DNA from: Hygrocybe punicea
Lineage: Eukaryota > Basidiomycota > Agaricomycetes > Agaricales > Hygrophoraceae
Direction: 5' to 3'
NCBI GenBank assembly: GCA_963556145.1
Contig: OY744465.1
Span: 1,116,001 to 1,180,000, forward strand
DNA length: 64,000 nucleotides
The position numbers and the translations under genes were made by a program. Of the stretch, positions 5,741-60,800 are shown piece by piece (the stretch's first letter is position 1; each line of letters begins with the position of its first letter). Below the pieces are notes generated by a model. It was not told the DNA's origin. It was given only the letters and a program-made list of their open reading frames with translations, and did no database searches.

Positions 5741-8042
5741 ACACGACTTGCCCCTTCCTCCCCACAAAATATACAGCCACCAGTGCACTGGAACTCTGTG
5801 TGGCACGCATAACACCCGATCCACCACCTCTGCACGTCCGTCTTCCACGGCCCGACGATCCAACACCGCGTCATCCACCTCTCACCTTCGGGGACGCCGC
5901 AGTCAAGGGCAGACGGCTGGGAGATGTGGCGAACGGAAATACGGGTGAGAGTGGAAGCTGTGGACGTGTGGTGCATGAGCAAACCAGCGTTGCATGGCTC
6001 GGAAGCGGTGTACGGGTGGGTGTGCGGGTGGGTGTGGGTGCAGACATGGTATTCAAGGTGCCGGTGGTGCCCACGAGAGGCAACGCTCATGTTGGTGTGA
6101 CGGGGATGAGCATAGCTCAAACTCGAGCACGAGGTGGGTGAGGAATGCTGATGAGGAGATTGAGATGGCAAATAAGAGTGTGCGTGCTTTCCCGTTGCTC
6201 CGGCTGCTTGCGCCTCCCTCACGTCACTCATTACAGCTCCTAAAGAAGACTACGGTTGCGCAACTCGCCATGCACGGGGTAGCTCGGACACACCGAGTTT
6301 ATGGAACTGTTTGGGTTCATGTACCGGGGTGCAGCGTTTGCCTTGATGCGTTAAGTTCCTCTTGGCGGTTGCCTTCATCACCCTATATTTTTTCGGTGGT
6401 CGTGAACCTTCACCCGGGCCGTCGTCGTTGGCTCATGGCACTGCCACCACCGTTGTGTTCATTGGCTCATTGGCCAACTGGGTGGTTGAGGGGGGTTAGT
6501 GGTGATGGCGTATCGCAGCTGTATACAGAGTGATTGTAGATATAAGTAGATATAAGTAGATATAACAAAAAAACACATACCTTTCGCAGCGGAGGTGGGT
6601 GCACCACCCTCCGCTGCACCCCTCGCCATTTCCATCACCCACCGTCGCCTCACCAATCGCCGTTCTTCGTTTCCGAGGTCCGTCCTCCGTTTCCGTGGAC
6701 AATGGTGTGGGCGTTTGCGTTCACATTCACAGGTGCGTTGGTGATGGCGTTAACGTGTGGCTGTTGACTTTGGCATGGGCAGGCATTGGTGTGGGCGTCG
6801 TTGGGGTGCTAGTAGGTTGTGTAGTAGTTAGTAGATGTACAAGTTTTAAAAAAACTTACTTTTGGCAGCCGGGGTGGTGCACATCCCCCGATGTTCCCTT
6901 TCCCTTGTTTGGGGCCGACTTGTTTGTCACGATGCCTTGGTGGTTGACGGGAGACAGGTGGTTGTGATTGCTTTGAGAAGTGTGATCACTTTTGCCAAAC
7001 AAGGTTACATGGTCCGTCGTCGTCGTTACCTGCACACGCCATTGCTGATGTTGGCGTTGTCATCTTAAGAAATGCCCAGTCGGGCCCTAGTTGTATCGCT
7101 GTGGTTGTCGCAGCCGGCCCCCTGCTCATTCTGGTCGTCCACGTCGTGCTGGTCATCAAGGTTACCCTCGAAGGCACAAGCGCACACCATTCGACGTAAA
7201 CAAGTCACCTGGTGTGTGGATTATGGCAAGCGCGACATACCTGTGGGCACACCACCCCCAGCCTTCCTCGTCTCCCTCGTTGTCTTCTTCCCTGTCATCT
7301 TCAAGTTGTGTGTTCTTCATCTTTGTAGTCCGAGTCGTCGTTGTGGTCGAAGTTACTTATTACAACTTGAAGTACTTTATTTAGCTTTGGCCACGGACTG
7401 ACACTGTCTTCGATTTAGGTCAGGAACTTCAAGCCAGGACAGCGACACTTGCGGTTGTGCGGTGCAACCACGACCTTACCGCACAGCTAACAGAGCGGAA
7501 AGAATGGCTCAGCTAGTTGATCCAATTTATCAATGATAATGCTATGTTAACCAAGGTTCCGATTATTTTGTTTGAATTCATTATGCTCTGCTGATCGTTT
7601 GGGCCATAGATCTCGCCAAGGAGTAGGCAACCGACGCAGATGCAATGGGTCCCATGAGGCCTGTCACAGATCCAAGCGGCTTTAGCGTTCTGAGGCCTGA
7701 AGCTTGCTGACCGCAACTCCATTATTTTTGAGTGGGTCATGTCGAAAAGTATCGGATTCTATTTAATTATAGCCGTTAGTCTTTGCTTTCAAATAGTTGG
7801 GACTGGGTTTTTCTTCGCTTGCTAATAGAACGTAGGCCATGAAATATTTTCATCGGTGAAAGAGGGACTTGTTGGCGTTTCTGACTCATTTCTTTTTTGT
7901 GTGCGATTGGATTGGGCAGACCGAGTGCGGGGGCTTGTAGCGCACAACGCCATGTCCAATATAATCAATGAAAGGTACTTTTACAAACAATAAATCCATT
8001 CAACGTCGCGCCACATCATACCGCGAAAAATCGACGGTGATT
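5741..8042. other. Low-complexity, GC-biased interval without a recognised gene
   Basis: Long G/T- versus C/A-skewed stretches (6000-7400) create overlapping ORFs on both strands. A short direct repeat of TAGATATAAG occurs three times at about 6536-6565. Several minus-strand GTAAGT-like donors (near 6860, for example) precede AT-rich tracts. This resembles the internal part of the hAT-like elements at 15.2 and 45.9 kb, so it may be an old non-autonomous transposon. A short Gln/Leu-rich frame near 7415-7515 is unassigned. Confidence 0.35.
8036..8042. other. Target-site duplication (left), GGTGATT
   Basis: Identical 7-mer at 14932-14938. Together they define the insertion site of the foldback element. 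Confidence 0.85.
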
Positions 8043-10265
8043 CAGTAGACCCAGTCTTTTTGGTTAACCCGATCGCAGATATAGTTGCAAAAGGTAGGTA
8101 CACATAGCGCAGTTGCTTGCTGGGGGGGTAGGTTAACCCAAAAGACAGCACTTGCTGGGGAAATGTGGTGTGGTAGGTTGACCCAGGTACAGTTCTTGCT
8201 GGTCAAGGGTGGCTGGTTGGGTCAACCTGGTGTCAGCTCTGCCATGGGGTCGGTTAACCCAGGGCAGCTATTCCAGGACGGTTGGGTTGACCCAGGCCCA
8301 GCTGTTCAAGCCATGTGGGTTGACCTGGCTGCAGTTATTGTTGCAGCACTGGGTTGACCCCAGTCCAGCTCTTGCTGCAGGCTTGGGTTGACCTAGATGC
8401 AGCTTTTGCTGCAGAACTGGGTTGACTAGAGCCCAGCACTTGCTGGAGGGTGGGGTGACTGGGGTCCAGCAATTGCTGCAGCACTGGGTTGACCTGGCCC
8501 CAGCTCTTGCTGCAGCACCGGGTCAACCAAGAGCCAGTTATTGCTGCAGGATGGGGTTGACCTGGTCCCAGCTCTTGCTGCAGCACAGGGTCAACCTGGG
8601 CCCAGCTATTGCTGCAGCATTGGGTTGACCTGGGCCCAGCTATTGTTGCAGCACTGGGTTGACCCGGGTCCAGCACCTGCTGCAGGGCTTGGGTTGACCA
8701 GGATCAGCTATTGCTGCAGCACCAGGTCGACCTGGGCCCAGCTATTGCTGCAACATTGGGTCGACCTGGGCCAGCTATTGCTGCAGGATTGGGTTGACCT
8801 GGCCCCAGCTCTTGCTGCAGCACCGGGTCGACCTGGGCCAGTTATTGCTGCAGCATTGGTGGACCCAGGTCCAGCACCTGCTGCAGGGCTTGGGTTGACC
8901 AGGTTCCAGCTGTTGCTGCACCACCAGGTCAACCTGGTCCCAGCTATTGCTGCCGCATTGGGTTGACCTGGGCCAGATATTGCTGCAGCATTGGGTCGAC
9001 CTGGTCCCAGCTCTTGCTGCAGCATTGGGTTGACCTGGCCCCAGCTCTGGCTGCAGAACCGGGTCAACCCAGGGCCAGCTATTGCTGCAGCATTGGGTTG
9101 ACCTGGTCCCAGCTCTTGCCGCAGCACTGGGTCGACCTGGGCCCAGCTCTTGCTGCAGCATTGGGTCAACCCAGGTCCAGCTCTTGTTGCAGCATTGGGT
9201 CAACCCAGGTCCAGCACCTGCTGCAGGGCCTGGGTTGACCAGGATCCAGCTATTGCTGCAGCACCAGGTCGACCTGGGCCCAGCTATTGCTGCAACATTG
9301 GGTCGACCTGGGCCAGCTATTGCTGCAGCACTTGGTTGACCCTGGCCCAACACTTGCTGCAGGGTAGGTTGACCAGGGTCCAGCTATTGCTGCAGCACTG
9401 GGTTGACCCAGGTCCAGCACTTGCTGCAGGATAGGTTGCCGGGGGCACAGCTTGTTCTGCAGCATTGGGTTGATCCTGGACCCACTGATGGGGCAGGCTT
9501 GGGTTCACTAGGGTCTGGCTAGTGTTCCAGCACTGTGTTGCCATGCCCAGCTTTTGCTGCAGAAAAGGGTTGACCCTGGCCCACCTCTCCCTGCAGCATT
9601 GGGTTGACCAGTGTCCAGCTCTTGCTGCAACATGGGCTCATGTCGGTCGACAGGCTTGCATCACATCCCACTTTGCCTGCATGTATTTCATGTTCCAAAC
9701 ATTGACAGAGCTCACACCAGCTCAAGCCAATATTTATTCAGAAACTGCCATATAAAGTAATCAAAAATTTTCAATCTGCACATGACACACATGTACCACA
9801 TAATATAATTTGAATGCACTTATTCAAAGCACAGGGAATAGCAAAATTAAAAAATTATTATTTTGACAATGCACAATATCTTACTTTTACTATCAGCTAT
9901 CAGCCATTACAGGAGCTACTTATTCCCAATGACAATCTATGACAAAATCAGAACTTACCCCACTTGGAATATTGTGCTTTTCTATTTAATATTGCTCAAT
10001 TACCTCACTATTACTTAAAATAGACACATAAATTTAATGATTATTTTATCCAAATACATAATTAAATAGTGAAGGGCAGAAGGCAGGTGAGAGGAAGATA
10101 GGTGGGTGTGGAGTGGGAGGAAGGTGGGAGTGGGAGAAGGGAGTGGGAGAAGGGAGTGGGAGTGGGAGAAGAGGGAAGGTGGGAAGGCAGCAGGGAAGGG
10201 AGGGAGACGGAGACGGAGACGGAGACGGAGACGGAGACGGAGAGAGGGAGGAGAGTGGACTGTAC
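8043..10265 (+). repeat. Left giant inverted arm of foldback element
   Basis: Near-identical in reverse complement to 12325-14931. Outermost is about 110 bp of unique terminal sequence, then the 34-bp minisatellite (about 8160-9640), then an AT-rich unique part (9640-10080), then a purine-rich GGGAG/GAGACG simple-sequence part. It is about 300-380 bp shorter than the right arm, mainly through fewer minisatellite units. Confidence 0.88.
8160..9640 (+). repeat. 34-bp minisatellite, left arm (about 38-40 units)
   Basis: The unit starts GGGTTGACCTGGGCCCAGCT and continues ATTGCTGCAGCATT, 34 bp in all. Units vary at a few positions (GGTCGACC/GGTTGACC/GGTCAACC; CTATTG/CTCTTG) and some lose a few bases. 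Each unit contains the palindrome CTGCAG inside CAGC..GCTG, and a GTTGAC/GTCAAC core. The many overlapping ORFs here (Leu-Gln-His-Trp-Val-Asp type repeats) are artefacts of the repeat period and are not annotated as genes. Confidence 0.9.
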
Positions 10266-11051
10266 ATACGTTCCCGTTGTCCTCGTCGTCTTCGTCTACG
10301 TCTCCGCCGTCCTCGTCCCCCTCATTCCCGTTCCCGTTCCCGTCCCCATCGTCCCCGTCCACGCCGTTCCGGTCCCTGTCGTTCCCGTTCCCGTCATTCC
10401 TCTCGTCGTCGTCATCGTCGTCGTTGTCGTCGTCATCCTCGTCGTCCGATGGATCGTCGTCGTCGTCTGCGTCATCCTGTCGTCCCCTAGCTGGCCGTCC
10501 CCGTCGTTCCCGTCCCCGTTGTCCCCGTTCCCAACGTCGTCCTCGTTGTCGTCGTCCCCGTCTCCGTCCCCGTCGTCGTCCTCGTCGATCCCTGGATGGT
10601 CGTTGACTCCGTCGTCCTGTCGTCTCTTCGCTGGCCGTCTCCGTCCCCGTCGTCTTCCCCGGCTGGCCGTCTGTGCCCTCGTCGCCTCTGTCCTCGTCGT
10701 TGCCTGCCATCCGCCGTTTCGGCCCTTCAGTTGGGCGTTGACGTGACATGGCGCGGGCATGCGTGTTGCGGTCAATTCCAGGCGCGGCAGTGAGAAAGTC
10801 CTTCATAAAAACAATAATATTAGCTAGCATAGTAATAGTAATAAATTTTGAGAAATCTACTTACCTTCTACTTGATTTTGCTGCTGTTGCTGTTCTCGTG
10901 GACGCATCGTGGAGTACGCGACGATTTGAACCCACGCCGGAGGTTGCCGATTACCCAAACGGGCGCGAGTTGCCTTATATGTAACCAAGATCTTACTTTT
11001 CTCAGTGTAATTGCATGGAGCACAACAACTGTGTAGCACATTTAAGACCAC
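10015..11051 (-). CDS. Left-arm putative spliced gene of foldback element (Arg/Asp/Gly-rich)
   Basis: Minus-strand reading: a first exon (11051-10866) with LGNRQPPAWVQIV and a Gln run, a GTAAGT donor at 10864, an AT-rich intron, an AG acceptor just before 10800, then a long Arg/Gly/Asp/Glu low-complexity exon that runs into the arm. The right arm carries a diverged homologue in mirror position with equivalent splice sites and the shared LGNRQ motif, which argues that the structure is meaningful. No domain is recognised. The C-terminal low-complexity part may only reflect GAC/GAG/CGT repeats. Function unknown; possibly an accessory protein of the element. Confidence 0.35.
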
Positions 11052-11199
11052 GTAGGGATAGAATTAGCCTCTAACTACGTCCCCCCCAAATTTTGTATTT
11101 TATTATGGCATACATAGAGAGATATCCATGATTCATTGATACCTCCCTGCCAATTTCGGACCCTTAAAATGCTACTTTACCAATATTGCTCTGAAAAAT

Positions 11200-11480
11200 A
11201 TGAGAATAATTGTGAAACTACTATGTAAAGTATCTATTGTATTGATGATCAGTGCCTGGCACTTGGTGGTCCCAGAATCTGTTGTAGCCAAGAAATGAAA
11301 GGTTCAAAGTAAAGCTGAACTTGAAGTTCGGACTTGGTTGATGGGTCAGCCACAATGCACAATTCTGTGCATTTGCTTGGCTGAAACAAAGGTGCTGGTC
11401 CACCAACAATCAGGCACTTATGTGTACCACAATGAGTACTCATTAAAGTACTCCTGAGATTAATTTCAGATTTTTAAGAC
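11200..11480. other. Central spacer (loop) of foldback element
   Basis: AT-rich sequence between the points where the two arms stop matching. Just outside it, the left arm ACCTCCCTGCCAATTTCGGA and the right arm (reverse complement) CCTCTGCCAGAATTGGAC still align imperfectly. No ORF of note. Confidence 0.55.
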
Positions 11481-11618
11481 AAAGTTAGATCATTAAGGGT
11501 CCAATTCTGGCAGAGGAATGGAATAAATTGTGAATAGCTCTTGATGCAGGGCCGAATAAAATACAAATTTTAGTATGAGGGTAGATATACCATATTTACA
11601 CCTTTTGAGGATTTCACT

Positions 11619-12609
11619 TTGGGTATGCATGCATTGTTGTGCATGCTAGAAGATTCAAAAGCTTCAGCGACACTTCCATGTTTGGCAACTCGACCCCGTT
11701 TGGGAAATCGGCAACTGCCGGTTGGCTTTCCCGCGCGAGTTCAAGCGTTGAACAACGGGAGATGGGTGCAGAGGAGCACCCGAGGTAAATTTCTGATTTT
11801 AACTTGTGTTCTTTACTAATTGTTGACCTTTTCCAGCTACCCCACGCCAAACAGGCGATTCCGAACACCCAACAGCAGAACACAACGCGCCAGCAAACAG
11901 AACGGAAGCCGACGAAAACGGCCACCGTGAGGATGGCGGAAACGAGGATGCGCCAACGACCAGGACGGACGGCCGAGACAACCACGACAGCAACGACGAG
12001 GACAGTCGACGAGGTCACAAACGGCCGGCGAGGGGACGACGGGGCGGAGAAGGATAGCGACGGGACGACAGGACGACGGAGACGACGACGACCATCCGGG
12101 GGACGATGACAACCATCCAGGTGACGACGAGAACGACGACGGGGACGGAGACGCGGGTGACGACGACAACGAGGACGATGACGACGACGACGGGAACGAC
12201 GGGAACGGGTACGACAGCGACGGGGACGACGGGGACGAGGACGGCGGAGACGCGGACGAGGACGACGGGACGAGGACGGCGGAGATGCAGACGAAGACGA
12301 CGAGGACGACGGAAACACGAGAGGTATGTACATCCCACCCCTGCTCCCTCTCCCTCTCCCTATCCCAGTCCTCCTCCATCTCCATCACCCTCACCCTCTC
12401 CCTGCTGCCCTTCCCGGCTGCCTCCACCTTCCCTCTTCTCCCACTCCCACCCCCTTCTCCCACACCCATCCCCTTCTCCCACACCCATCCCCTTCTCCCA
12501 CTCCCACCTTTCTCTACTCCCACTCCCACTCCCACTCCCACCTTCTTCTGACTCCACACCCACCTATCTTCCTCTCACCTGCCTTCTGCCCTTCACTATT
12601 TAATTATGT
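11619..12609 (+). CDS. Right-arm putative spliced gene of foldback element, mirror of the left-arm gene
   Basis: Exon 1 (11619-11784) contains RPRLGNRQLPVGF. The donor GTAAAT at 11785 and acceptor TTCCAG ending at 11836 delimit an intron of about 52 nt. Exon 2 starts with a Thr/Gln/Arg-rich segment and passes into GACGACGACGG-type repeats. It is homologous to the minus-strand gene of the left arm, and the two are transcribed away from each other from the central spacer. The frame is not conserved over the simple-sequence part, so a functional protein is doubtful. Confidence 0.35.
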
Positions 12610-14931
12610 ATTTGGATAAAATAATCATTAAATTTATGTGTCTATTTTAAGTAATAGTGAGGTAATTGAGCAATATTAAATAGAAAAGCACAATATTCCA
12701 AGTGGGGTAAGTTCTGATTTTGTCATAGATTGTCATTGGGAATAAGTAGCTCCTGTAATGGCTGATAGCTGATAGTAAAAGTAAGATATTGTGCATTGTC
12801 AAAATAATAATTTTTTAATTTTGCTATTCCCTGTGCTTTGAATAAGTGCATTCAAATTATATTATGTGGTACATGTGTGTCATGTGCAGATTGAAAATTT
12901 TTGATTACTTTATATGGCAGTTTCTGAATAAATATTGGCTTGAGCTGGTGTGAGCTCTGTCAATGTTTGGAACATGAAATACATGCAGGCAAAGTGGGAT
13001 GTGATGCAAGCCTGTCGACCGACATGAGCCCATGTTGCAGCAAGAGCTGGACACTGGTCAACCCAATGCTGCAGGGAGAGGTGGGCCAGGGTCAACCCTT
13101 TTCTGCAGCAAAAGCTGGGCATGGCAACACAGTGCTGGAACACTAGCCAGACCCTAGTGAACCCAAGCCTGCCCCATCAGTGGGTCCAGGATCAACCCAA
13201 TGCTGCAGAACAAGCTGTGCCCCCGGCAACCTATCCTGCAGCAAGTGCTGGACCTGGGTCAACCCAGTGCTGCAGCAATAGCTGGACCCTGGTCAACCTA
13301 CCCTGCAGCAAGTGTTGGGCCAGGGTCAACCAAGTGCTGCAGCAATAGCTGGATCCCGGTCAACACAAGCCCTGCAGCAAGTGCTGGACCTGGGTCAACC
13401 CAGTGCTGCAGCAATAGCTAGGCCGAGGTCAACCCAATGCTGTGGCAATAGCTGGGCCCAGGTCGACCCGGTGCTGCAGCAAGAGCTGGGGCCAGGTCAA
13501 CCCAATCCTGCAGCAATAGCTGGCCCAGGTCGACCCAATGTTGCAGCAATAGCTGGGCCCAGGTCGACCTGGTGCTGCAGCAATAGCTGGATCCTGGTCA
13601 ACCCAGGCCCTGCAGCAGGTGCTGGACCTGGGTTGACCCAATGCTGCAACAAGAGCTGGACCTGGGTTGACCCAATGCTGCAGCAAGAGCTGGGCCCAGG
13701 TCGACCCAGTGCTGCGGCAAGAGCTGGGACCAGGTCAACCCAATGCTGCAGCAATAGCTGGCCCTGGGTTGACCCGGTTCTGCAGCCAGAGCTGGGGCCA
13801 GGTCAACCCAATGCTGCAGCAAGAGCTGGGACCAGGTCGACCCAATGCTGCAGCAATATCTGGCCCAGGTCAACCCAATGCGGCAGCAATAGCTGGGCCC
13901 AGGTTGACCTGGTGGTGCAGCAACAGCTGGAACCTGGTCAACCCAAGCCCTGCAGCAAGTGCTGGACCTGGGTTGACCCAATGTTGCAGCAATACCTGGG
14001 ACCAGGTTGACCTGGTGCTGCAGCAATAGCTGATCCTGGTCAACCCAAGCCCTGCAGCAGGTGCTGGACCCGGGTCAACCCAGTGCTGCAACAATAGCTG
14101 GGCCCAGGTCAACCCCATCCTGCAGCAATAACTGGCTCTTGGTTGACCCGGTGCTGCAGCAAGAGCTGGGGCCAGGTCAACCCAATCCTGCAGCAATAGC
14201 TGGCCCAGGTCGACCCAATGTTGCAGCAATAGCTGGGCCCAGGTCGACCTGGTGCTGCAGCAATAGCTGATCCTGGTCAACCCAAGCCCTGCAGCAGGTG
14301 CTGGACCCGGGTCAACCCAGTGCTGCAACAATAGCTGGGCCCAGGTCAACCCAATGCTGCAGCAATAGCTGGGCCCAGGTTGACCCTGTGCTGCAGCAAG
14401 AGCTGGGACCAGGTCAACCCCATCCTGCAGCAATAACTGGCTCTTGGTTGACCCAGTGCTGCAGCAAGAGCTGGGGCCAGGTCAACCCAGTGCTGCAGCA
14501 ATTGCTGGACCCCAGTCACCCCACCCTCCAGCAAGTGCTGGGCTCTAGTCAACCCAGTTCTGCAGCAAAAGCTGCATCTAGGTCAACCCAAGCCTGCAGC
14601 AAGAGCTGGACTGGGGTCAACCCAGTGCTGCAACAATAACTGCAGCCAGGTCAACCCACATGGCTTGAACAGCTGGGCCTGGGTCAACCCAACCGTCCTG
14701 GAATAGCTGCCCTGGGTTAACCGACTCCATGGCAGAGCTGACACCAGGTTGACCCAACCAGCCACCCTTGACCAGCAAGAACTGTACCTGGGTCAACCTA
14801 CCACACCACATTTCCCCAGCAAGTGCTGTCTTTTGGGTTAACCTACCCCCCCAGCAAGCAACTGCGCTATGTGTACCTACCTTTTGCAACTATATCTGCG
14901 ATCGGGTTAACCAAAACGACTGGGTCTACTG
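12325..14931 (-). repeat. Right giant inverted arm of foldback element
   Basis: Reverse complement of the left arm, including the simple-sequence CCCACTCCCA part (12325-12560), the AT-rich unique part (12590-12980), the minisatellite (13030-14830) and the terminal CAGTAGACCCAGT. It carries extra 34-bp units compared with the left arm, for example around 13350-13500. Confidence 0.88.
13030..14830 (-). repeat. 34-bp minisatellite, right arm
   Basis: Same 34-bp unit as the left arm in inverted orientation (AGCTGGGCCCAGGTCAACCC form). It is longer than the left array, with unit order largely shared, so the arrays expanded or contracted after the palindrome formed. ORFs within it are period artefacts. 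Confidence 0.88.
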
Positions 14932-14938
14932 GGTGATT
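14932..14938. other. Target-site duplication (right), GGTGATT
   Basis: Matches 8036-8042. Directly follows the terminal CTGGGTCTACTG of the right arm. Confidence 0.85.
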
Positions 14939-15148
14939 TCACCAAGAGTCTCCACACGAATGTGAATGCGGTGGTTGCCCTTGTGGCAGAATGAGCATCG
15001 GAATTGGCTATCATACAAAAAACTCACCCGATTCACAGCCTGGACGTAAGTCCCCGTTTGCCATGCAGCTCCGTAGCGGACTCAGACGGACTGTCCTCAC
15101 TGTCACGGTCGACGTCAGCACACGTGTATCAGAAGGCCTCGATCACAT

Positions 15149-17011: not shown

Positions 17012-18000
17012 AAAAAATGGTATTTCACAGGAATAATTAAATATTTATCAGAATGACTTATATTGTGTGGCTAAGCTTCTACAAGACTCTAATCAATCAC
17101 CTTCAGTTGTCTGACGTGTTGAGACGTAGAGCAAGATGGATAGCCAAAAAAGGGCGGCCTCGTCCTGAAAACAGCGACGAGGTCCCCAAAGGATGTATTT
17201 TGTTGAAAAATACTGAGTTCAGGAACGGGGCGGAACCGTAGTTTAAGAAAAGAGTCAGTCATGAAACAATGAGTCCTTGAAGGAACTACGTGAGATAAAA
17301 AGGTGCAGCAGCCGAAAAGCAAGAAAGGGCGACGTGGGAAGGGTGATCGAAGAAGACAACTGAAGTCTGTCGAGAAAAGATGAGACTAATCGTTAAAAGA
17401 CATAAGAGACTTACTCGGGGGGAACAAGGTCGTTTGCGAGGACCCTGTGAAAACCCCGAGTATAAAAGAGGACATGAAAGGTAAGACTATGTGAACATGA
17501 GACGAGACAAATTTTGGAACAGTGAGTTCAGAAGGGTCCTGAGACGACTGAGTTATAGAAAGGTCCAGAGACATGCAAGGTATGAAAAAGGGAGGCGATT
17601 CCCGTTCGTACTGGTACGAGTGTAGATCATATCGCGATGGGTCGGCATAGATGAAGACAGATTGGACGCGTCCGTTTGGGATTTGTATGATTAGACTTTA
17701 GTAAACAAAACATTTTAAATTCAAGTAAAAAATGGTATTTAACAGGAATAATTAAATGTTCATCAGAATGGCTTATATTGTATGGCCAAGCTTCTATAAG
17801 ACCGTGAAAAAATGGTATTTCACAGGAATAATTAAATGCCCATCACAATGGCTTATATTATATGGCCGAGCCTCTATAAGACTTTGAAAAAATGGTATTT
17901 AACAGGAATAATTAAATCCTCATCAGAATGGCTTATATTGCATGGCCAAGCTTCTATAAGACTGTGAAAAAATGGGATTGCAGCGGAATAATTACGTGTA
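17012..18000 (+). repeat. 80-bp tandem repeat array with a 0.6 kb interruption
   Basis: Units begin AAAAAATGGTATTT(A/C)ACAGG and end with a TATGGCCAAGCTTCTA-type segment. Starts at 17727, 17807, 17887 and 17967 give an exact 80-bp period (the last unit diverges). A further unit starts at 17012, preceded by the tail of another (about 16976-17011). About 620 bp of unrelated sequence (roughly 17100-17720) separates that unit from the main array. No coding content is assigned. Confidence 0.8.
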
Positions 18001-38774: not shown

Positions 38775-41700
38775 ATGGCTCCACGCAAGAGTGCAGCTCC
38801 AGGTCATTCTCATGTTGGTCCTTTACGTGCCAGTGGTGCTGGCGAAGCCAACTTGAACTCCAACACCGGCACTTGGGCTAGTCCTTTACCACAAGCTCCA
38901 AAAACAAGTACAGGATTGGAAGGCTTGCGTGATAAAGGTCCGTCTTCCCACTGACTAGTCCCAGATTAAATAACTGAGTTTCCATAGAAAACGAACCTGT
39001 TCTACGTCACTCTGACCATTCATCAAAGGGTACAGGTGGTCTTTAATGGCTTCAAATCGTATCAGATTGTGTGACGTGAAAGAGCGGGACTAGGAAATGC
39101 AAAAATGCACAATTTGACGACATCCCGGCATCAACCGTCGAAAACCCTATGGCCCCTCCACCAAAGACCAAGAAAGGTCGCACTCAAAAGGTGAGTATAG
39201 CATTGCATTGCATTCACTGTATCGGTCTGAACCAGGTTATTGCTACCAAGGGAATTGCTGTGGAATGTGGACAGCAGGCCCCGTTGTCAATTCCTTTGCC
39301 TGTCCAGCAACCTGTCCGCATTGTACCTCCTGGTACAGAACCAGTGCTACGAAACGATTCCTATCAGTTTGGTTTCAACCCTCCTCCAGCGCTGTCTGCT
39401 CCCTCCTCCGAAAGCTGTCCTCATTCACCGAGTTCTCATAATTCTGGAGTGGGAACCTTGCAAGGACCTGGAAGGTAGGCTGCCTCTCATAATCAGTGAC
39501 AGTTTTATGACGCTGTCTGTAGACAACGTGCCTCGGTGTCAGTTCCTTTGCCCGCCCGGCAACCTGAACCAGCGGGATGAAATGATTCCTATCAGTTTGG
39601 TTTCAACCCTCCTCCAGCGCTGTCTGCTCCTTCCTCCGAAAGCTGTCCTCATTCGCTGAGTTCTCATAATTCTGGAGTGGGAACCTTGCAAGGACCCGGA
39701 AGGTAGGCTGCCTCTCATAATCAGTGACAGTTTTATGACGCTGTCTGTAGACAACGTGCCTCGGTGTCAGTTCCTTTGCCCACCCGGCAATCTGAACCAG
39801 CGCTATGAAATGATTCCTATCAGTTCGGTTTCGACTCTCCTCCAGTGCTGTCTGCTGTGTTATCCGAAAGTCGTTCTCATTTGCCAAGTCTTCATGCTTC
39901 TGGAGTGGGAACCTATCAAAGGCCCAGAAGTGCTAGGTTGGTAGCCTCGCTATTTAGTGACAATCTTTTGATGTTCCCATAGGTGTCCACCAACCATTGA
40001 TCCTCTCCTTTTGATGGGCAACTCTGCTGTACATCTTCAATGCCATATAGGTCGAGACGTAACCGGCCCTCGATATGCAAACAACCTTTCACCCTTGAGA
40101 GACCATAACTATAACCATGCCAATGCCGATACTAACGCTGTCAATCGTAGGTTAGTTTTATCTGAAGAGGAATCACCAATCCGCCCCCAAATGTATTCGG
40201 CAACTAATGACCTTTATGATGCTGACTCTGACAATATTAATCGTGACATTACCGATATTCATGTCACTAACGACATTCATCACGACACTCACGGCCATTC
40301 GATCAACTCTAATGACATCCATCATGACATTCATGACTATGCAATCAATGACCAGAACCGTTATTCTGAAGAAAACTTAGGTATATTGTCATTTTTGCGC
40401 CATTTTTTTACTTTCTTACTGTACCCCACCGCCAGAATTTGGCCAGGTACCCTCTGGAAATGAAAATGCTACCGAAAACTCACTCAGGACACCAGCTGTG
40501 AATAATCACGTAAATGATGTGTGTTCCTCTTAATTTTGCGCTGTGCCCATTGATATATAGTATTTTAGTCGGATATGGAGGATGACTCTTATGATGTTGT
40601 TGCTGACCATCACCGGCGAAATCGTGCACCTAAGCCACCCAATGCCCATCAACTTCGTGCAATCCAGGAATCTGGCCAACAAGACGATGACAATGCCATG
40701 ACTGATTCTGAAGCCGAAGTTGAAAGCAACAATGAATCTAGAACTAGGCCGAAGGCCAAACGACACTCCCACAAAGCCTACAGTAAAACATCAACTAACC
40801 CAAAGAGATATCGTTTCTATCTGTTGCGGTGGAGGAAAGTCCTTGACAACGCAAAGGCGCGCTTTCGAAAATGGATGACAATCAAATGCGCATTCCCAAA
40901 CCCCTCAAATGAAGGTCATCGTGAGACTGCGGCCAAGTGCATTGCTGATGCCCTACTTGAATATGAAAGAAAAGGTGGCCGAGTGGAACAAGGTAAGATT
41001 GACCGTCAATTTTTGAACATGAGTTCTGATTTTTCGCAGGATTTTATCCCGAGCACGAAAGTGATATGATTGCTTATGTGAGTATTCAAAGTTCACATAT
41101 GAGATATTGTCCAATTTGTAATACAGCTCTTTAGCGATCGTTCAACATTTCGCGGTGAAATCAAGTCAAGGGCTAAAGCCATTGTAGAATCTCGCTACCC
41201 TCTATTCCCAACAGAAACTGTCCCTGGACAGATGGAATATCTAGCCGCTGTTTCGGCAAATGTCAAGTGGTTGGTGGATAAAGGATTCTTTCTTCAAGGC
41301 GAACACAAAGACAGCCAGGTGCGGAGTAGCTTAGAAAGATAAATGGCTTTCATTCACTTTTTCTGTAGGGCAAGACAAACAATCTGGCGCATTCGGCCAT
41401 TATCGAACTAATTCAAAATTTCTATGGCCCCTCGAAGCTAGCATCATTGTTTCCAGAAGATTTCGAACGGGAAGTCCCTTGTGGTGCTGTTGCACTTGTT
41501 GCAACTGCGGTACGTTCTTATTCGTATACTCTACTCTAGCTCAACATTTGTTACAGATAAAATGTATTCTCAATGCCTACGCGAACGGATATTATGATGA
41601 GAAACACGAATTCTCCGAGGATGCTTACATAGAACATTACGAGGCGATCTGGAGACTCATCGAGTCTTTGAAAGCAAACCTGTATCACTGGGGAAAATTT

Positions 41701-42828: not shown

Positions 42829-44521
42829 ATGCCTCTCCGAGGTGATCGTTCAGCCCCGACGTTTCATGGTGACGAACACGACCTTCCGCTTCTTTGACAA
42901 AATTGACATGCTCGGCTCCGACTGTGGACTCACGGACACTATGAAGATTCGCTATACGCTCCGGTACCTCAATAACGACGATTACGAACTTTGGTCTACC
43001 CTACCCGCCGCTTCAGCAAAGGACTTCATCGCTTTCCGACGTGCCGTTTTCGCCTTCTATCCCGGTGCCACGGACAGTATTCGGTATACAATCGCGGATC
43101 TTGATCAATTGATTAGACGACAATCGGCTTATGGTATAGAAAACAAGATGGACTTAGGACAGTATTTCCGGGACTTCATACGCATATCCGGAGTACTATA
43201 CGACAACGGCTGTTTATCGGACAAGCAGTGGAATGAGTATTTTGCCAACGGATTTGACTCAGATCTTCATCAACGTGTTGAAGAACGACTCCATTACCTT
43301 CTTCCCAGTCATTACCATGACGATCCGTACCCGGTTGATATTTTCCACGACGCCGCGTTATTTCTCCTTTCCGGTTGCCATTCCGTTCCGGAATCCGTTG
43401 TCACTGCAGCCCCCGTTGCCATTTCCAGTCCCGATTCCGGTCCCGCTCCTGCACCTGTCACAGTCATTTCACCTCTGGAACAGATCCCGTCCTTGATCCC
43501 GTCCTCGATCCCATCCTCGATCCCGCCCACTGTCGTTCGTTCCGTCCCCCACGTTCATTCCGGTCCTTCGTATACTCCGTCCCCGTCATTGTGTTCCCCG
43601 TCCCCGTCCATTCCGGTGCCCGTCGAGACCGTCATTTGTTTACAGGTTTTGTCGTCCAGTCCCGTGTCGCCCCCGTCCGATCCCACTCCCAATTTATCGA
43701 TGCCGGTCAACGATTTATCCATTCCGTTTCCTATTTCGTCCCCGTCATCTCCGGTTTCGTACCCTCCGGTTTCCGTCCACGAACTCGTACCAGACCCGCT
43801 CCAATTGTCATCGGATTCTCCAGAAATAGACATTCTGTCCCCGATATTGTCGCCATATTGTCCTCCGTCACCGTCTACTGAGATTCCATCGACTTTGGTT
43901 GAGTATTCCGTACCCGTTCCCATTCCGGACCCCATTCCTCCCCTTTTATTTGATTTCGATTCCGGTTCTGATTCCGTTATGTCGACCCCTTCGTTCCCAG
44001 TTCCCCTCATCGTTTCTGCTCCCGTATCGTTGTCGGTTCTGTCTTCGCCCGCTTGGGGCACCCTGTCGTTTTTAGACCCGTCACGCGGCACACCCGTTAT
44101 ATGGGATCGTGTTGGTGTCGGCACTCCGGTTCTCGATTTTATTTTATTTCTTGTTTCCGTTTTCATTCTACTTTGTCATCGCATTTTGGACCTCCGCCCC
44201 CTCGACACCTTGCTCAAATATTTGCAAGAAGTTCTCCGCCTCCTCTCGTCGTTCCGCCTCCGACCTTCTTTCAGAAACTCTTGTGGGGATGTAGACCCGT
44301 TTCCATCTCCTATTTTTGCGTTTTCGTCTTCCGTTCCGCTTTCCGTTCCCGTTCCCGTTTCTTGTTTATTTATATTTTCATTTCCATTTCTAGTTCTCTT
44401 TGTTTCCCGTCCTTTCTGGACCTGTTTCGTTTCCGTTGTATTCCGGTCCCGTCCTCCTCCTCGACCCCCAGATTCCGGTTATCTTATCTCATCATTCCGT
44501 TTCCCTCTTTTGCGTTTATAG
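42829..44521 (+). pseudogene. Gag-like ORF of the LTR element, frameshifted near its start
   Basis: The natural start appears to be MPLRGDRSAPTFHG at 42829, a motif common at the N-terminus of basidiomycete Gypsy gag proteins, but that frame stops at 42895. A one-base shift near 42888-42892 joins it to a 559-codon frame (42842-44521) containing DKIDMLGSDCGLTDTMKIRY, DDYELWSTLPAASAKDFIAF and LYDNGCLSDKQWNEYF, a capsid-like helical gag region (residues about 15-180). The rest is Pro/Ser-rich and then hydrophobic, with no zinc knuckle. Gag would bind and package element RNA. It ends 73 bp before the convergent antisense gene. Confidence 0.7.
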
Positions 44522-45884
44522 TTTTATTATGTACTCTATTTTTCTTTATGTACATTGTCCCGCATTCCGTTTTCCCTTTCCGTCCGTTCCCTTTTATTCC
44601 CTTCTCCCTTCGTCGAGTTTGGTGTCGATTAGGTCGAGTTGACCCAGGATATGGGCCTGGTTCGCGCGTAGTCGATTTAGCTCCTTCGTCCAACGGGTTA
44701 GCTTGGTGTGGACCTCCGCGATGTATTCAGAAAGGCCGTCCGCGATTGTCGATATCTCCCTTTGCGTTTCCGTCGCCATCTTGCGTACTGCCCGGACGTG
44801 GTCGTTGATTCTGGCTCCGATCCACGGGTGCTTGAACGGATTCCCTCGCCTCCCATCGTCCCGCTCCGATTCCGTATCCGGTTTGACGTTGGTCAACGTC
44901 CGCTTACTCGTCGACGCCTCTCCGGTCCGCAACCTAGGCTTCCTCACGGGCTTTGGTATCTTCTTCGCGACGACCTTTCTCTTCGGACTACCTGCCTTCG
45001 CCTTCCCTTTCCTTTCCGCTTTTCTGGATCCAGTGGCCAGTCCCTTCGTCAACAATCCGCAACGTCATTTAAGTCTTTTGCACCGATCGCACGCATATCC
45101 CTCGATTCCGCGACAAACCGCGTTGGCGGTCACGCACGCATCGCATTGCCGGATCCGGAACGACTGCATGTACTACGGATTAGTTAGGCACCATGGATAT
45201 ACGAGTCCGCGAAATATCACTTACCCCCGGAATCTTTCCCTTCGGTTCCGCGTCCTCGTTCCCGCTCGCATTCGAGAAATCGTTGCCGCTGTTGTAGTCC
45301 CCGTGAACGGTCTCGTCGTCCCGGGTGACCCTCTTATCCCGGTTGAGCTTTTTGTTTTTGATCGCGTTCAGTACTTGGAGTCTTTCGTATTTTCGAAGTT
45401 GCTGATTGGACCAGGTGTCCTCCTTGTCCTCGCTTCCGTGATCGCTGGTTTGTGCAGTCTCCTCCCGGTCCCTTTCCGCGGCTGCATCAGCCTCCCTTTT
45501 TGCTGCCTCTGCCGCCTTCACCCTTTCCGCCTCCTCAACCCGTTGTTTCCTCGCTTCTTCCTCCTTTTCCTCCTGCAACCGTACAGTTTCCCGACACCTC
45601 ACCTCTTTCCGTTCCCGTTCGTAGTCTTCCCAGCTCCGCAACCACTCCTCGACCTCCACCACCATCTCTCCGCCCATCGAGAAATCCTTCGGTTCCGTCA
45701 CGTCAATTCCGTTGTCCCGGATTTCCGTCAAGATTCCTCTGTAGTTCCGCTGTCGGGTATCGTTAGTCTGTGCCGTTTATGGGAACAGGATCTCTTACCA
45801 TGGCCCGTCGTCGTCTCACCACCCATTGCCGTGCTTCATTCTCGAATCCGTCACGTACGATATCGATTCCGGCTGCGTCGACTT

Positions 45885-45892
45885 CTAGTAAC
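45885..45892. other. Target-site duplication CTAGTAAC (left of hAT copy B)
   Basis: Identical to 47178-47185. Confidence 0.9.
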
Positions 45893-47177
45893 TAGTGATG
45901 GGGAAGTTCGGTTCGGTCCGGCTTTTGGCCTTTTTGCCCCAAACCAAAACCGAACGGTTCGGTTCCTACCAAAAAATCCCAAACCGAAACTGAAACCGAC
46001 GTAAACGGTTTACGTTGGTTTGGTTTCGGTCCAGACGCGGTCTGAACCGCGAACCGCGTGGGCTGGGGGCCCTCCCTCCCATCTGACCTCGCAAGAGCGC
46101 TGCACACGTCAATCGACGTGGCTAGCCTCATTACGAGGTGGGATTGGGGGTTGGTGGGCTGCACGGCCCTGTCCTAGCGAAACACACGCGTCAAACGCGT
46201 GTGTTCCGCCTCGGCTGTTGTCGATTGGGTGTGGTGGTGGTGGTGGTGATGCCCCGACGCGTCAGACACGTTGTGCACGCGACGACGGGCGTGTTGGCCC
46301 CGCGTTGGTCCTGCGTTGGTTGTTTTCGGCGAGCGCGTGGTGGTGGCGTACGGGCCTCTCCGCGTGGGTGTCCCGACGCGTCATGCGTGTTGTACACATG
46401 CGGCGGGCGGGTTGACCCCGCGTTGGCCGCATTGGTGTTGCATGGTGGTGGTTGTGGTGGTGGTGTTGCATGGTGGTGGTGGTGTTGTGCCGCGTTCCGT
46501 TATATACAAATAAAATCAATAAAAGAAAGAATAAAAATAACATACCACGAAGGAGCGGGGGTGGATGCACCACCCCCCGCCGCTCGTTCCACCTCTCTGA
46601 CTCCCACTCCACCCTGTTCACGTTCGTTTGCGTGCGCGCGCGTCTTGAACACGTTGTTGTTGGCGTCCGACGTGGCGGTCCTGGTGGTTGTAGCGGTCCT
46701 GGTGGTTGCGGCCGTCGTGGTGGCAATCGTCGTCATCGTCGTAGTGGTGGTGGTGGTGGCCGTGGTGGTAGTGGTGGTGATGGCCGTGGTGGCCGTTGAC
46801 TGTAACTTGCTACTGTTAGTGTCGAATAAAAAAAATAAAAAAATAAACAAAGCATAGGTGGGCAGCAGGGAGTACCCTGCCACGTTTGGTCCACCTCGGG
46901 TGCTCCGTCGTCCTCGTTTGGCGTACGTTGTGGGCATTCTTGGTGGTTGCAGAAGTGTCTTGGTGACTTTGGAAGTCAGCCAAGTGGCCGACTTGCGAAT
47001 ATCGGTTTGCGGTTCAAACTCAGTTTGAAACCGTTTCGGCCCGCGGCCAAATCTCCAAACCGGAGACCGAACCGTTCGGTCTCAGCCGAAATTTCCCAAA
47101 CCGAAACCGAAACCGGCGGTTTCGGTTCGGTCTAAACCGGGTTTGGGTCGGTCTGAGACCGAACTTCCCCAACACTA
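45893..47177. mobile_element. hAT-like non-autonomous element, copy B (1285 bp)
   Basis: Ends TAGTGATGGGGAAGTTCGGT and (reverse complement) TAGTGTTGGGGAAGTTCGGT. Perfect 8-bp duplication CTAGTAAC at 45885-45892 and 47178-47185. Largely identical to copy A at 15157-16392 through the outer parts and the GC-rich middle. It differs in the segment about 46590-46860, where GGTGGT-type repeats have changed length. Confidence 0.9.
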
Positions 47178-56599: not shown

Positions 56600-57830
56600 A
56601 GGGACATTCTGACTGTAGGAAGGCGTAGGGATATATTTTGATCCATAGGGACAATTTCCAAAGAAGCCCAAGGCCTGAATAGTTATCCCAAGGGATGATT
56701 TTGACAAAGGACCATGGCCTGAAAATATGATCCCATGGGATATATTACAATACCATCAGGGAGAATATATATTTTTCTAGGATATATTATAGAAATATCT
56801 CAAGCAGGTCTACTATAGCCAGAGATAGTGTTGTCTCAGCTCAAGCTGATGTTTTTTGATTAAAAGGCCTAGGAACTGTAATAGTATCCCAGGGGATATT
56901 CTGGTGGTTGTAGAAACAGCCCATGGGACACATAAAATATTCTTTGGGATATTAATTTTATCCCAGAAAGCAAGCCATGGGACACAAAGAATGTCCCTTG
57001 GGATACTTATCTTACCTGAGAAAAGCCCATGGGACACATAGAATCTCCCATGGGATACTTATGTTGTCTTAGAAAACAGCCCATGGGACACGTAGAATAT
57101 CCCTTGGGATACTTTTGTTGTCTTGGAAAACAGCCCATGGGACATGAAAAATATCCCTTGGGATATTTACCTTACCCGAGAAGAGCCCATGGGACACATA
57201 GAATCTCCCATGGGATACTTATGTTGTCTTAGAAAACAGTCCATGGGACACATAGAATATCCATTGGGATACTTTTGCTGTTACAAAAACAGCCCATGGG
57301 ACATGAAAAATATCCCATGGGATATTTACCTAACCCCAGAAAAGCCCATGGGACACATAGAATATCCCATGGGATACTTATGTTGTCTTAGAAAACAGCC
57401 CATGGGACATGTAGGATATCCCTTGGGATACTTTTGTTGTCTTAGAAAACAGCCCATGGGACATGAAAAATATCCCTTGGGATATTTACATTACCCAAGA
57501 AAAAGCCCATGGGACACATAGAATCTCCCATGGGATACTTATGTTGTCTTAGAAAACAGTCCATGGGACACATAGAATATCCATTGGGATACTTTTGCTG
57601 TTACAGAAACAGCCCATGGGACATGGAAAATATCCCTTGGGATATTTACCTTACCCAAGAAAAAGCCCATGGGACACATCAAAGCAACCCGTGGGACACA
57701 AAGAATGTCCCTTGGCATATTTACATCACCCAAGAAAAAGCCCATGGGACACATAGAATATCCCATGGGATACCTATCTCATCTTAGAAAACAGCCCATG
57801 GGACAAATAAAATATCCCTTGGGATATTCT
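56600..57830 (+). repeat. CCCATGGGA satellite, about 53-bp units (about 17 clear copies)
   Basis: Each unit reads AGCCCATGGGACACATAGAA, TATCCC(A/T)TGGGATACTT and a TTGTCTTAGAAAAC-type linker, so every unit holds two near-palindromes that can pair into a hairpin. Clear copies run from 56926 to about 57830; diverged ones start near 56600. ORFs of the PMGHIEYPMGYLCC type are repeat artefacts, though three forward frames stay open over several units. Confidence 0.85.
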
Positions 57831-60800
57831 TATAGGTCTTCGGAACAAAGAATCACTGTATCATAAAGGCCCACTACAACATGCAAACTGGTATACGAAG
57901 AGGGGCTAAGCAAAGGACACATGGTATGTACCAACCTGAAACCAATTCTGCAAGTTTGCTCATCTTCCGAGCCATCCAGAGTTTCATCCACCAAGCCATC
58001 CGGAGTTTCATCCACGAAGTCGACATCATATTCACGTTGGTGGCAGGAGGGACCTGCCTCAGGTGTCTTCGGCATCCTGTTGTAATCGTGGGCATGTGTG
58101 TGATTTTGGTAGGCCTTAGACTTCTTGTGCATGGCAAGCTTGGGGATTCGCATCATATGAGCCCCATCAGAGTACTGGTATTGAGAATAATCATCCTCGT
58201 AGTGAGCGCGCTTCCTTACATGCAATGGGGGGCTTGCCACTTCATGATCAACCTGTTGATAAAAATATTCGTCTGGATGATATCTCCTATATTCATCGGC
58301 ATCCAAAGGCCTACCCATGGGTCGTGGCATAGTGGAGCGAGACACCATCGGGGCAGCTCCATAAGAAGCAGCATAATGCTGCTTCTCGCGTGGCATGATA
58401 GCTTTGTCATCCATAAAACGGCGCTTGTCTCTCCTGGCATCCTTTATGATAGGTCCGTCATCTTCTGGATAAGGCCGAACTTTGGGTTGCCATTGCAACA
58501 CAGGCGGATGCCGGGCAGCTTTGTTCTTGTGCAGATTATGAGGGGGGCCTTCATCCGACTCCCACTCAACCCCAACATCTGAATCGACAGCTCCAAGCTG
58601 CATCAACTCATTGTTCATGGAATCAACATCGCGGTCACGGAGGGTGGGTCGAACGTCATGGGGCCGCACAGCAGGTTGCCACACTCTCTCTGCTGTATTC
58701 TTGGATGTAAGGTTATCGTGCGAGGCGGCAGCTTTCTTTTTAGAAATGCGTGAGCGGTTTTTTGCCGCATACATCTTCTCAATGTGGGCGATCCATTCTG
58801 GACAGTCCTTGAGGATTCGGAGAGAGGCGCCGGAGCTTGATATGACTAAAGGAATGTGCCCCTTGAGCGGGTCGTCATCAGGGCGAGCAATATCCTCTAC
58901 AGGTGGGGTCTTAGGCAACATTTCATGAAAGTTTGATATACACACCATCACTCCATGACACAATGTGCGGATAAGGATTGTCATTATTGTCGTTCCTCAC
59001 ATTCTCGATGTAGCCCCCTACCAGCCAGCTAAGGGCACTGGTGGCTAGATTCTTCAAGTTGAAACCTGGCCTGGGGGATATGATATCGTCTGGCCAATCT
59101 AGAATACATAGGTGGTGCTGCCAGGCATTCTTCATCCATTTTCCGTAGTGCATTTTCTTCCTGAGCACGTCCTCAACCTCCTCGGCTGTACAAATGTTAG
59201 CAGAATACACTGGACAAGGCTAGGAATACATACCGGCGCCGTTCTGCATCATGGATGTGAACACACGGCGATCACGATCACGATTGTTTTCATGGCCTCG
59301 GCACTCTACATCAAGGGTCCCAACTGGAAGGTTTAATCCCTTCCTGCGGTACTCAATAGACCTGCCATGCCGTCAGTCAAAGGAACATTTTTGGGTGAAA
59401 TAAACACACTTGAGGGTTGTGGTTATCTTATCCATGATTTCATGAACGTCCAGGTTGTGGGCTTCAATCAACTGGAACACTGCGTCAGAGCCTCCAAAAA
59501 AGGCCGAGGTTTGTCGGGCTGCAGCATCCATTCCTGTGTAAACGATCGCGCCGATGACTTCAATTTCTTCCAGATTATGATATGATGCAGCCTGCAGGAA
59601 TGATGAAATCGCCGTAGAAGTGCTCTGTCTTGGTACTCACCAAACTCATAAACTGGTCCTTTGCAGCCTGCATCGTTGCGACGATGGACTTAAGAGTGTG
59701 TGCACCACCAATCTCACCATCGTCCAGGGCATCCATGAACTCTAGGATTGGCTTCAAGACTTCCGCGCGCTTGACAGGGTCCTCCACCGATAATACCATC
59801 TCGCGATAGGCCCGGTTCATGACTTTACCATACTCTGTGTAGGTGACTGCTCAGGGGATTAGTGGCAAGCGCAGCGCAAGTAAATTTTTTGACTCACGGC
59901 TACCTTTAGGGTTATGGTGTGCATACCATTTTTTGAACATGTTGAATGGGTTCTTGGAGCGGGACGTGCGGACTCCTAAGCCGGCGGCGAGCATGACATC
60001 CCGTGTGCTTTTCTTGTATTTGCGGGCAATTCTCTCAGCCTCTCGGGTCACTTTGAGAGTGAACTCCTGTGCTTCCGCTCGTGCCGCCTTGGAAAGCGGC
60101 CCCGGAGTTTTGATCCAACGGCCATCACCCTCATTAGCATCCTCCTCATCACCATCACCAGCCCTCTCTTCGTCGCCACGATTAGCATCGTCATCGCCGG
60201 TGCGAGCGCGCTGCTTGGTCGCCTTGGAATGGTGCTTTTGGGCTTCAGCGCCATCGACAGTCTCCTCGTCATCATTGTCAGCATTCTTGTGAATGCGGAT
60301 GCCCTTCTTGGCTGCCTTGGGACGACGCTTGCGTGGTGGAGAATCGTCATGCTCCGAAGCAGCCTCCCCTGACAGTTCACGGTCCACGCGTGCATCCTCC
60401 GATTCCGTATCACTGGCTTCGTGACCGCGTTCTGCCTTCTTGCGATGCACGGCTTGCTTTGCTTGCATTGCTTGGCCATAGTCGCTGCCAGAGGTCCCAG
60501 ATTCGTCATCATCTAGCATGGCTTCTGAAATGACATCAGTGGGGACTTCATCATGTTAGTGACAATGAACAAACCGGGCGCTTCTGGAACTCCCCCCTGC
60601 GGCAAAATTTCAGGGGCCGGGGTCCCTCCAGCACTGCTCGGTTCTTGTGGTGTGGGGACATCTTTGTCAGCGGTCTGAAAAAAATGCGGCGAGAGAACAA
60701 GTGAGCGAAAGTCGGGGACAAAGGCCAAGGAAAACTCACTGGCTGCAGCTGGCCTACAGCTGGTTGATCAGGCCTGTTGCCTCCGTCGTCGCGTGCACCA

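What the first reader, a model, noticed from the sequence alone, without database searches (positions are those of the whole stretch)
8043..14931. Complete 6.9 kb foldback transposon with giant minisatellite arms and a 7-bp target duplication
Both ends, the perfect GGTGATT duplication and the near-palindromic arms are visible, so this is an intact, relatively recent insertion. I know of no named basidiomycete element of this form: 34-bp repeats filling more than 1.3 kb of each terminal repeat, no transposase, and an inverted duplicate of the whole body. It may be an undescribed family.
Basis: partly seen in the sequence, partly recalled or inferred. Interest (0 to 1): 0.8.

Follow-up and report, generated by a model that had tools for sequence, protein, structure and literature searches.

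The report
Palindromic jumping gene borrowing KDZ machinery
This is one of roughly 150 near-palindromic pieces of mobile DNA in a mushroom-type fungal genome; it carries no recognisable enzyme of its own and shares its long repeat-filled ends with a transposon of the KDZ superfamily, which probably moves it.

Summary
Window 8043-14931 is a complete 6,889-bp element with CAGTAGACCCAG ends and a GGTGATT duplication. Its inverted arms hold 39 and 48 copies of a 34-bp unit. None of its 27 ORFs (70 aa or more) resembles a transposase. Exact ends occur 328 times in the genome (control 25). Identical 7-bp flanks border 22 of 24 elements with both ends in hand. The window's joined flanks match 16 undisrupted copies of the target repeat.

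A likely mobiliser was found. A 10.7-kb element (C7:5413909-5424580, duplication TTGGCAA) has the same ends, a 34-bp unit identical at 32 of 34 positions, and CxC2 and KDZ transposase domains. The family is best read as non-autonomous KDZ foldback transposons. The 7-bp duplication fits the Kyakuja lineage; no tree was made.

Two features stand out. The palindrome runs to the dyad through a decayed, apparently non-coding core. In the AT-rich arm segment the two arms of an element evolve in concert: 16 of 1,386 polymorphic cells differ, although subfamilies differ by about 4-6%.

Foldbacks are known in the P and Mutator superfamilies. My searches of the held library showed none for KDZ.

The parts
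8036..8042 (.). left target-site duplication GGTGATT
   Evidence: single copy in 16 full-length empty sites
8043..14931 (.). complete foldback element, 6,889 bp, ends CAGTAGACCCAG...CTGGGTCTACTG
8043..8315 (+). left terminal segment; the first 300 nt of the arm align with the ends of the KDZ-encoding elements (82%)
8316..9636 (+). left minisatellite, 34-bp unit, 39.1 copies
9637..10080 (+). left AT-rich arm segment, identical to the right one
10081..10740 (+). left simple-sequence part (purine-rich GTGGGA/GGAGAC, then CGTCCC/TCG-rich); boundaries set by eye
10741..11830 (+). core shared by the family; palindromic with decay, dyad near 11330; no coding signal found
11831..12584 (-). right simple-sequence part (GAC-rich, then CTCCCA-rich); boundaries set by eye
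12585..13028 (-). right AT-rich arm segment
13032..14658 (-). right minisatellite, 34-bp unit, 48 copies
14659..14931 (-). right terminal segment
14932..14938 (.). right target-site duplication GGTGATT

Best explanation
The element is a non-autonomous, palindromic (foldback) DNA transposon that is moved in trans by a KDZ-superfamily transposase (CxC2+KDZ type, most likely the lineage with 7-bp duplications, Kyakuja). The transposase recognises the ends and probably the tandem 34-bp units as multiple binding sites, then cuts and reinserts the element with a 7-bp staggered cut. Shown: a mobile family, precise insertion, 7-bp duplications, and ends and 34-bp units shared with a KDZ-encoding element that has its own 7-bp duplication. 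Shown: the AT-rich segments of the two arms of one element evolve in concert. Inferred: mobilisation by KDZ, binding to the 34-bp units, and arm homogenisation by gene conversion or template switching between the arms.
For: Exact ends 168+160 times against control 10+15. Duplication of exactly 7 bp in 22 of 24 elements (23 foldback-type and the KDZ element), with no match at any other length from 4 to 10. The window's joined flanks match 16 undisrupted places over query 1-254 at 92-98%. Joined flanks of 7 of 21 elements span empty sites in the DNA held. C7:5413909-5424580 has both ends, TTGGCAA on both sides and minisatellite arms, plus CxC2 (2.3e-35) and KDZ (5.3e-35) domains. A second KDZ copy, in L033, has the same right end. 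The first 300 nt align throughout: window to KDZ 82%, L036 to KDZ 88-90%. The 34-bp unit matches at 32 of 34 positions. L036 is a foldback with the same core and KDZ-like ends. Arm concert. Kyakuja has 7-bp duplications and CA..TG termini (PMC12730594 section 3.2.1).
Against: Transposition was not observed. Neither KDZ copy held was shown to have an uninterrupted transposase gene, and L033's left end was not found. Foldback and KDZ arms are only about 78% identical, and nothing internal is shared. KDZ duplications elsewhere are 8 bp, or 4-8 bp in Cryptococcus (PMC12810828), and the two Laccaria Kyakuja families lack TIRs. Two of 24 elements have no matching 7-bp flanks: L006 and L031/32. For the minisatellite part of the arms, in 7 of 18 elements an arm of another element is closer than the sister arm.
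Confidence: 0.86

Rival explanations
1. A different 7-bp-duplication transposase (hAT7, P/Galileo-like or Mutator-like) moves the foldbacks, and the KDZ element merely acquired similar ends.
For: hAT7 with 7-bp duplications exists in rust fungi (PMC12730594). Galileo, a P-superfamily transposon, is foldback-like with 7-bp flanks (PMC3573991). A DDE_1+Ulp1 element lies inside one copy, L010.
Against: The KDZ element has its own 7-bp duplication, and its KDZ gene lies between two such ends. A second KDZ copy has the same end. The L010 insert begins in the middle of a foldback and looks nested. No hAT, P or Mutator family was searched for in the genome, so this rival is not excluded by search.
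Confidence: 0.08
2. Arm identity needs no special mechanism: one master with identical arms amplified recently, so all copies inherited the same arms.
For: Many copies within a subfamily are almost identical, and the minisatellite arms of 7 of 18 elements are closer to another element than to the sister arm.
Against: Three subfamilies differ in the AT segment by 3.6-6.3% substitutions from the window's and by an indel of about 20 bp, and nearly every change is present in both arms; master lineages must therefore have copied changes between arms. A small indel has different states on the two arms in four elements (L014, L020, L022, L025), while L023 has one state and L011 and L024 the other in both arms; it lies in a TA run, so repeated slippage could also explain it.
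Confidence: 0.1
3. Assembly artefact: the inverted copy is a read-through of one arm.
For: Long inverted repeats are prone to such errors (general knowledge).
Against: 22 of 24 elements have matching 7-bp flanks at different sites. The window's two arms differ by 309 nt and by 0.56% substitutions, and the core halves are only 72% alike. Reads were not available.
Confidence: 0.01
4. The family is not only a transposon: the long inverted repeat may be transcribed into hairpin RNA that silences the KDZ source.
For: Near-perfect arms of about 2 kb; the core is more conserved than the AT segment against L036 (8.5% against 19.7%).
Against: Arms are only about 78% identical to the KDZ arms, so few 21-nt matches are expected (inference). 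No transcript data were available. Against L031 the core is not more conserved than the AT segment (10.5% against 10.1%).
Confidence: 0.05

Closest known systems
Kyakuja lineage of KDZ (Kyakuja-Dileera-Zisupton) DNA transposons, Agaricomycotina
   Same: KDZ-type transposase in the presumed partner; CA..TG termini; 7-bp duplications (PMC12730594, passages and section 3.2.1)
   Different: The two Laccaria Kyakuja families are described as having no TIRs; this family has about 0.9-kb (KDZ copy) to about 2-kb and longer (foldback) TIRs, and the window member encodes no transposase. Lineage not tested by phylogeny.
KDZ1-KDZ3 of Cryptococcus neoformans
   Same: KDZ transposons of 9-11 kb with real TIRs, mobile (PMC12810828, passages)
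   Different: CxC1 rather than CxC2; TIRs of 139-241 bp; 8-bp or 4-8-bp duplications; no foldback derivative mentioned in the passages seen
Galileo (P superfamily, Drosophila)
   Same: Long TIRs with internal tandem repeats, 7-bp duplications, copies with non-matching 7-bp flanks; transposase binding sites lie in the repeats (PMC3688188, PMC3573991, passages)
   Different: P-type transposase with a THAP domain, not KDZ; no homology claimed
Foldback-type elements: Tetris (Drosophila virilis), Tm1 (root-knot nematodes, Mutator)
   Same: Foldback transposons; resemblance judged from titles and abstract starts only (PMC4079207, PMC3169594, listings)
   Different: Other hosts; Tm1 is assigned to Mutator in its title

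Membership tests
KDZ superfamily (as its non-autonomous derivative) | KDZ transposase between the same ends elsewhere in the genome | tested here: met
   C7:5413909-5424580, KDZ 5.3e-35 and CxC2 2.3e-35; second copy in L033 with one such end
KDZ superfamily (as its non-autonomous derivative) | the window element itself encodes a KDZ transposase | tested here: not met
   27 of 27 ORFs of 70 aa or more listed for 9600-13100 show none; it can only be a non-autonomous derivative
KDZ superfamily (as its non-autonomous derivative) | terminal sequence shared with the autonomous type | tested here: met
   first 300 nt of 7 ends aligned, window to KDZ 82%; 13-14% substitutions over the first 123 nt
Kyakuja lineage | 7-bp duplication and CA..TG termini | tested here: met
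   22 of 24 elements; CAGTAG...CTACTG
Kyakuja lineage | no TIRs (as described for Kyakuja-1_LB and -2_LB) | tested here: not met
   about 0.92-kb TIR at 85% in the KDZ copy; feature. So it is not filed as a Kyakuja member
Kyakuja lineage | transposase groups with Kyakuja on a tree | not tested
   no named reference proteins at hand
Foldback-type element (structural class) | long inverted termini built of tandem repeats, most of the element inverted | tested here: met
Galileo / P superfamily | P-type transposase with THAP domain in the autonomous partner | tested here: inconclusive
   the partner found carries CxC2 and KDZ; P families were not searched for genome-wide
hAT7 | hAT transposase in a partner with the same ends | not tested
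   no hAT search was run

The most novel reading that the evidence does not exclude
A KDZ foldback class in which the palindrome is rebuilt at transposition: the excised or nicked element folds back on itself and one arm is used as the template for the other. Arms are thereby kept alike in every active lineage while the unpaired core drifts.
Probability: 0.2. Interest if true: 0.75.

Novelty: new variant of a known kind. Interest (0 to 1): 0.56.

Why it matters
Foldback elements recur in unrelated transposon superfamilies, and why is unsettled (general knowledge). This adds a case from KDZ, with a likely autonomous-type partner in the same genome, many copies, paralogous empty sites, and a record of arm segments evolving in concert. 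That makes two questions testable: whether repeat-filled ends serve as transposase binding arrays, and how palindromic arms stay alike. By estimate (about 150 copies of about 7 kb) the family makes up about 1% of this genome.

Tried and rejected
tRNA-like stretches in the core, seen by eye, suggested a pol III promoter or SINE-like part: ARAGORN found no tRNA in the window, and all 18 Rfam matches to 8000-15000 were below their gathering scores, 13 of them in simple-sequence stretches; rejected. Small genes in the core: in four representatives only short frames coincide (for example a 50-53-aa minus-strand frame at 11496-11646 in all four), indels are not multiples of three, and substitutions show no overall codon phase. 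One 110-bp stretch, 10800-10910, leans to one phase (9 of 17 and 10 of 17 in two comparisons), which I did not test further; rejected as far as these tests go. Origin of the AT segment or core from the KDZ element: no match for the AT segment and only a 17-nt match for the core. DDE_1+Ulp1 ORFs in L010 as the autonomous gene: the break lies mid-element and it looks nested; not followed to its other end. Gene model for the KDZ transposase: a simple splice search did not join the exons. Core conservation as a sign of function: for in the L036 comparison, not in L031; inconclusive. Species identification from a window ORF gave 2 unnamed hits. Other fungal genomes could not be searched with these tools. 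Literature searches; 'foldback + transposon + basidiomycete' and 'fold-back + transposable element + Agaricomycetes' returned 0 papers each; the others listed only part of their hits (20 of 68, 12 of 13, 6 of 6, 12 of 23, 8 of 1,513, 10 of 57), and most listed papers were not opened. Only the held open-access library was searched.
Full report
Observation. The window is part of a 92.2-Mb genome in 42 contigs (C7:1116001-1180000). The element spans 8043-14931 and is bordered by GGTGATT on both sides. The arms pair at 98-100% in the three longest stretches and hold 34-bp minisatellites of 39.1 and 48 copies. Arm lengths outside the AT-rich segment are 1,594 and 1,903 nt, a difference of about nine units. 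All 27 ORFs of 70 aa or more listed for 9600-13100 were scanned against Pfam: no transposase, and one match (SR-25) far below its cut-off.

A family, not a single copy. The terminal 128 bp gave 40 scored matches of 371 candidates, 98-100% identical. The exact 12-mer CAGTAGACCCAG occurs 168 times forward and 160 times reverse, against 10 and 15 for the reversed-pattern control. Of the 97 listed places on C1-C3, 70 form 35 inward-facing pairs under 12 kb (null mean 1.0, maximum 6 of 500) with a median length of 6.9 kb; 27 places were unpaired. I fetched 26 stretches at other copies and later L031-L036. Of 24 elements with both ends in hand (23 foldback-type and one KDZ-encoding), 22 have identical 7-bp flanks, none at any other length from 4 to 10, and no strong base preference; the misses are L006 and L031/32. 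The control for precise insertion is direct. The window's joined flanks with one GGTGATT match 16 undisrupted places over query 1-254 at 92-98%, three of them with small gaps; 43 matches were found in all. In the DNA held, joined flanks of 7 of 21 elements span empty sites, the L018 one only at 82.5% with a gap; the window's own had none there.

The mobiliser. The genome holds at least 186 KDZ matches, counted exon by exon. Comparing the listed places by eye, one KDZ match lay next to a CAGTAGACCCAG end: L033 carries KDZ ORFs, then a 34-bp minisatellite, then the same right end; its left end was not found. Searching with that end found C7:5413909-5424580. This is a 10,672-bp element with both ends and TTGGCAA on both sides; its inverted minisatellite arms match at 85% over about 0.92 kb and at 98% over the first 300 nt. 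It encodes CxC2 (2.3e-35) and KDZ (5.3e-35). Its 34-bp unit and the window's agree at 32 of 34 positions. The first 300 nt of seven ends (two foldbacks, two KDZ copies) align throughout; window to KDZ is about 82%, L036 to KDZ 88-90%. L036 (5,824 bp, GAACCGA duplicated) is a foldback with the same core (8.5% substitutions), so it links the two types. An intact transposase gene was not demonstrated. Relatives of the KDZ copy's last ORF number 135, the best 120 listed; the two with named organisms are from Pleurotus pulmonarius and Phellopilus nigrolimitatus, most others are unnamed records on short contigs.

Which KDZ lineage. The 2025 survey of TET-bearing fungal transposons reports 7-bp duplications, CA..TG termini and no TIRs for two Laccaria Kyakuja families, and 8 bp for Zisupton and a Dileera (PMC12730594, passages and section 3.2.1). 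Cryptococcus KDZ1-3 have TIRs of 139-241 bp and 8-bp or 4-8-bp duplications (PMC12810828, passages). Duplication and termini therefore point to Kyakuja, but long TIRs do not fit its description and no tree was made. I file the family under KDZ and leave the lineage open.

Anatomy. The palindrome extends to the centre. The two core halves align at 72% without gaps over 10929-11297 (score 89 against a shuffled mean of 14.4 and maximum 21 of 200), with the dyad near 11330, which is also the midpoint of the perfect 824-nt arms. A core of 1,000 nt or more is present in 22 of the 23 foldback-type elements with both ends in hand; L026 (4.2 kb) keeps only a 75-nt piece. The core shows no coding signal beyond a slight, untested phase lean in one 110-bp stretch. 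Three fetched loci (L012, L018, L019) carry it twice.

Arms evolve in concert. In an alignment of the AT-rich arm segment from 18 elements (36 arms, 77 polymorphic columns; L008, L016, L026 and incomplete copies left out), only 16 of 1,386 cells differ between the two arms of one element. Subfamilies differ from the window by 3.6-6.3% substitutions and an insertion of about 20 bp. One small indel in a TA run is in different states on the two arms in four elements and uniform in either state in three relatives. The KDZ copy (85% over the whole arm) and L036 (94%) have less similar arms. The minisatellite arms are looser: within-element substitution ranged from 0 to 4.8% over 18 elements, and in 7 of the 18 (L003, L004, L012, L017, L018, L021, L024) another element's arm was closer than the sister arm. 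So the concert is clear for the AT segment and only partial for the arrays.

How it probably works. A KDZ transposase binds the terminal segment and probably the repeated 34-bp units, pairs the ends, cuts, and inserts with a 7-bp stagger (shown: the duplications, the empty sites, the shared ends; inferred: binding and catalysis). [quoted passage not shown]). Arm identity is probably maintained by gene conversion or template switching between arms, favoured by the palindrome (inferred).

Novelty. Foldback elements are known in P and Mutator (listing). In what the searches of the held library showed me I found no KDZ foldback and no foldback from basidiomycetes (listings were partial). This is a new variant of a known kind.

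Noticed in passing
window 56914-57826: Minisatellite with a 53/54-bp unit (AAACAGCCCATGGGACACATAGAATATCCC...), about 17 copies, beside a 388-aa ORF (57833-58996, minus strand) with no Pfam family and 2 unnamed homologues.
   Followed up: partly
window 42830-46004: Three overlapping long ORFs without Pfam match; paralogous DNA at 43310-43709 and 44509-44888 is the empty site of elements L018 (82.5%) and L016 (96%).
   Followed up: partly
window about 63609-64000: A KDZ transposase match (1.9e-46) runs over the end of the window (C7:1179609-1180235); its relation to the element was not examined.
   Followed up: no
L010:2672-7941: DDE_1 and weak Ulp1-protease ORFs inserted in the middle of a foldback copy; looks like a nested transposon.
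   Followed up: partly
L012, L018, L019: Elements with the core duplicated in direct orientation.
   Followed up: no
L006:301-7777; L031/L032: Elements with non-matching 7-bp flanks, as reported for chimeric Galileo copies; L006's arms are nevertheless alike.
   Followed up: no
window 7910-8042 and 14939-15060: The element sits in a dispersed repeat with 16 full-length undisrupted relatives among the scored matches; the repeat was not identified.
   Followed up: no
window 17727-17994 and 39338-39914: Tandem repeats of 80 bp (3.3 copies) and 228 bp (2.5 copies).
   Followed up: no
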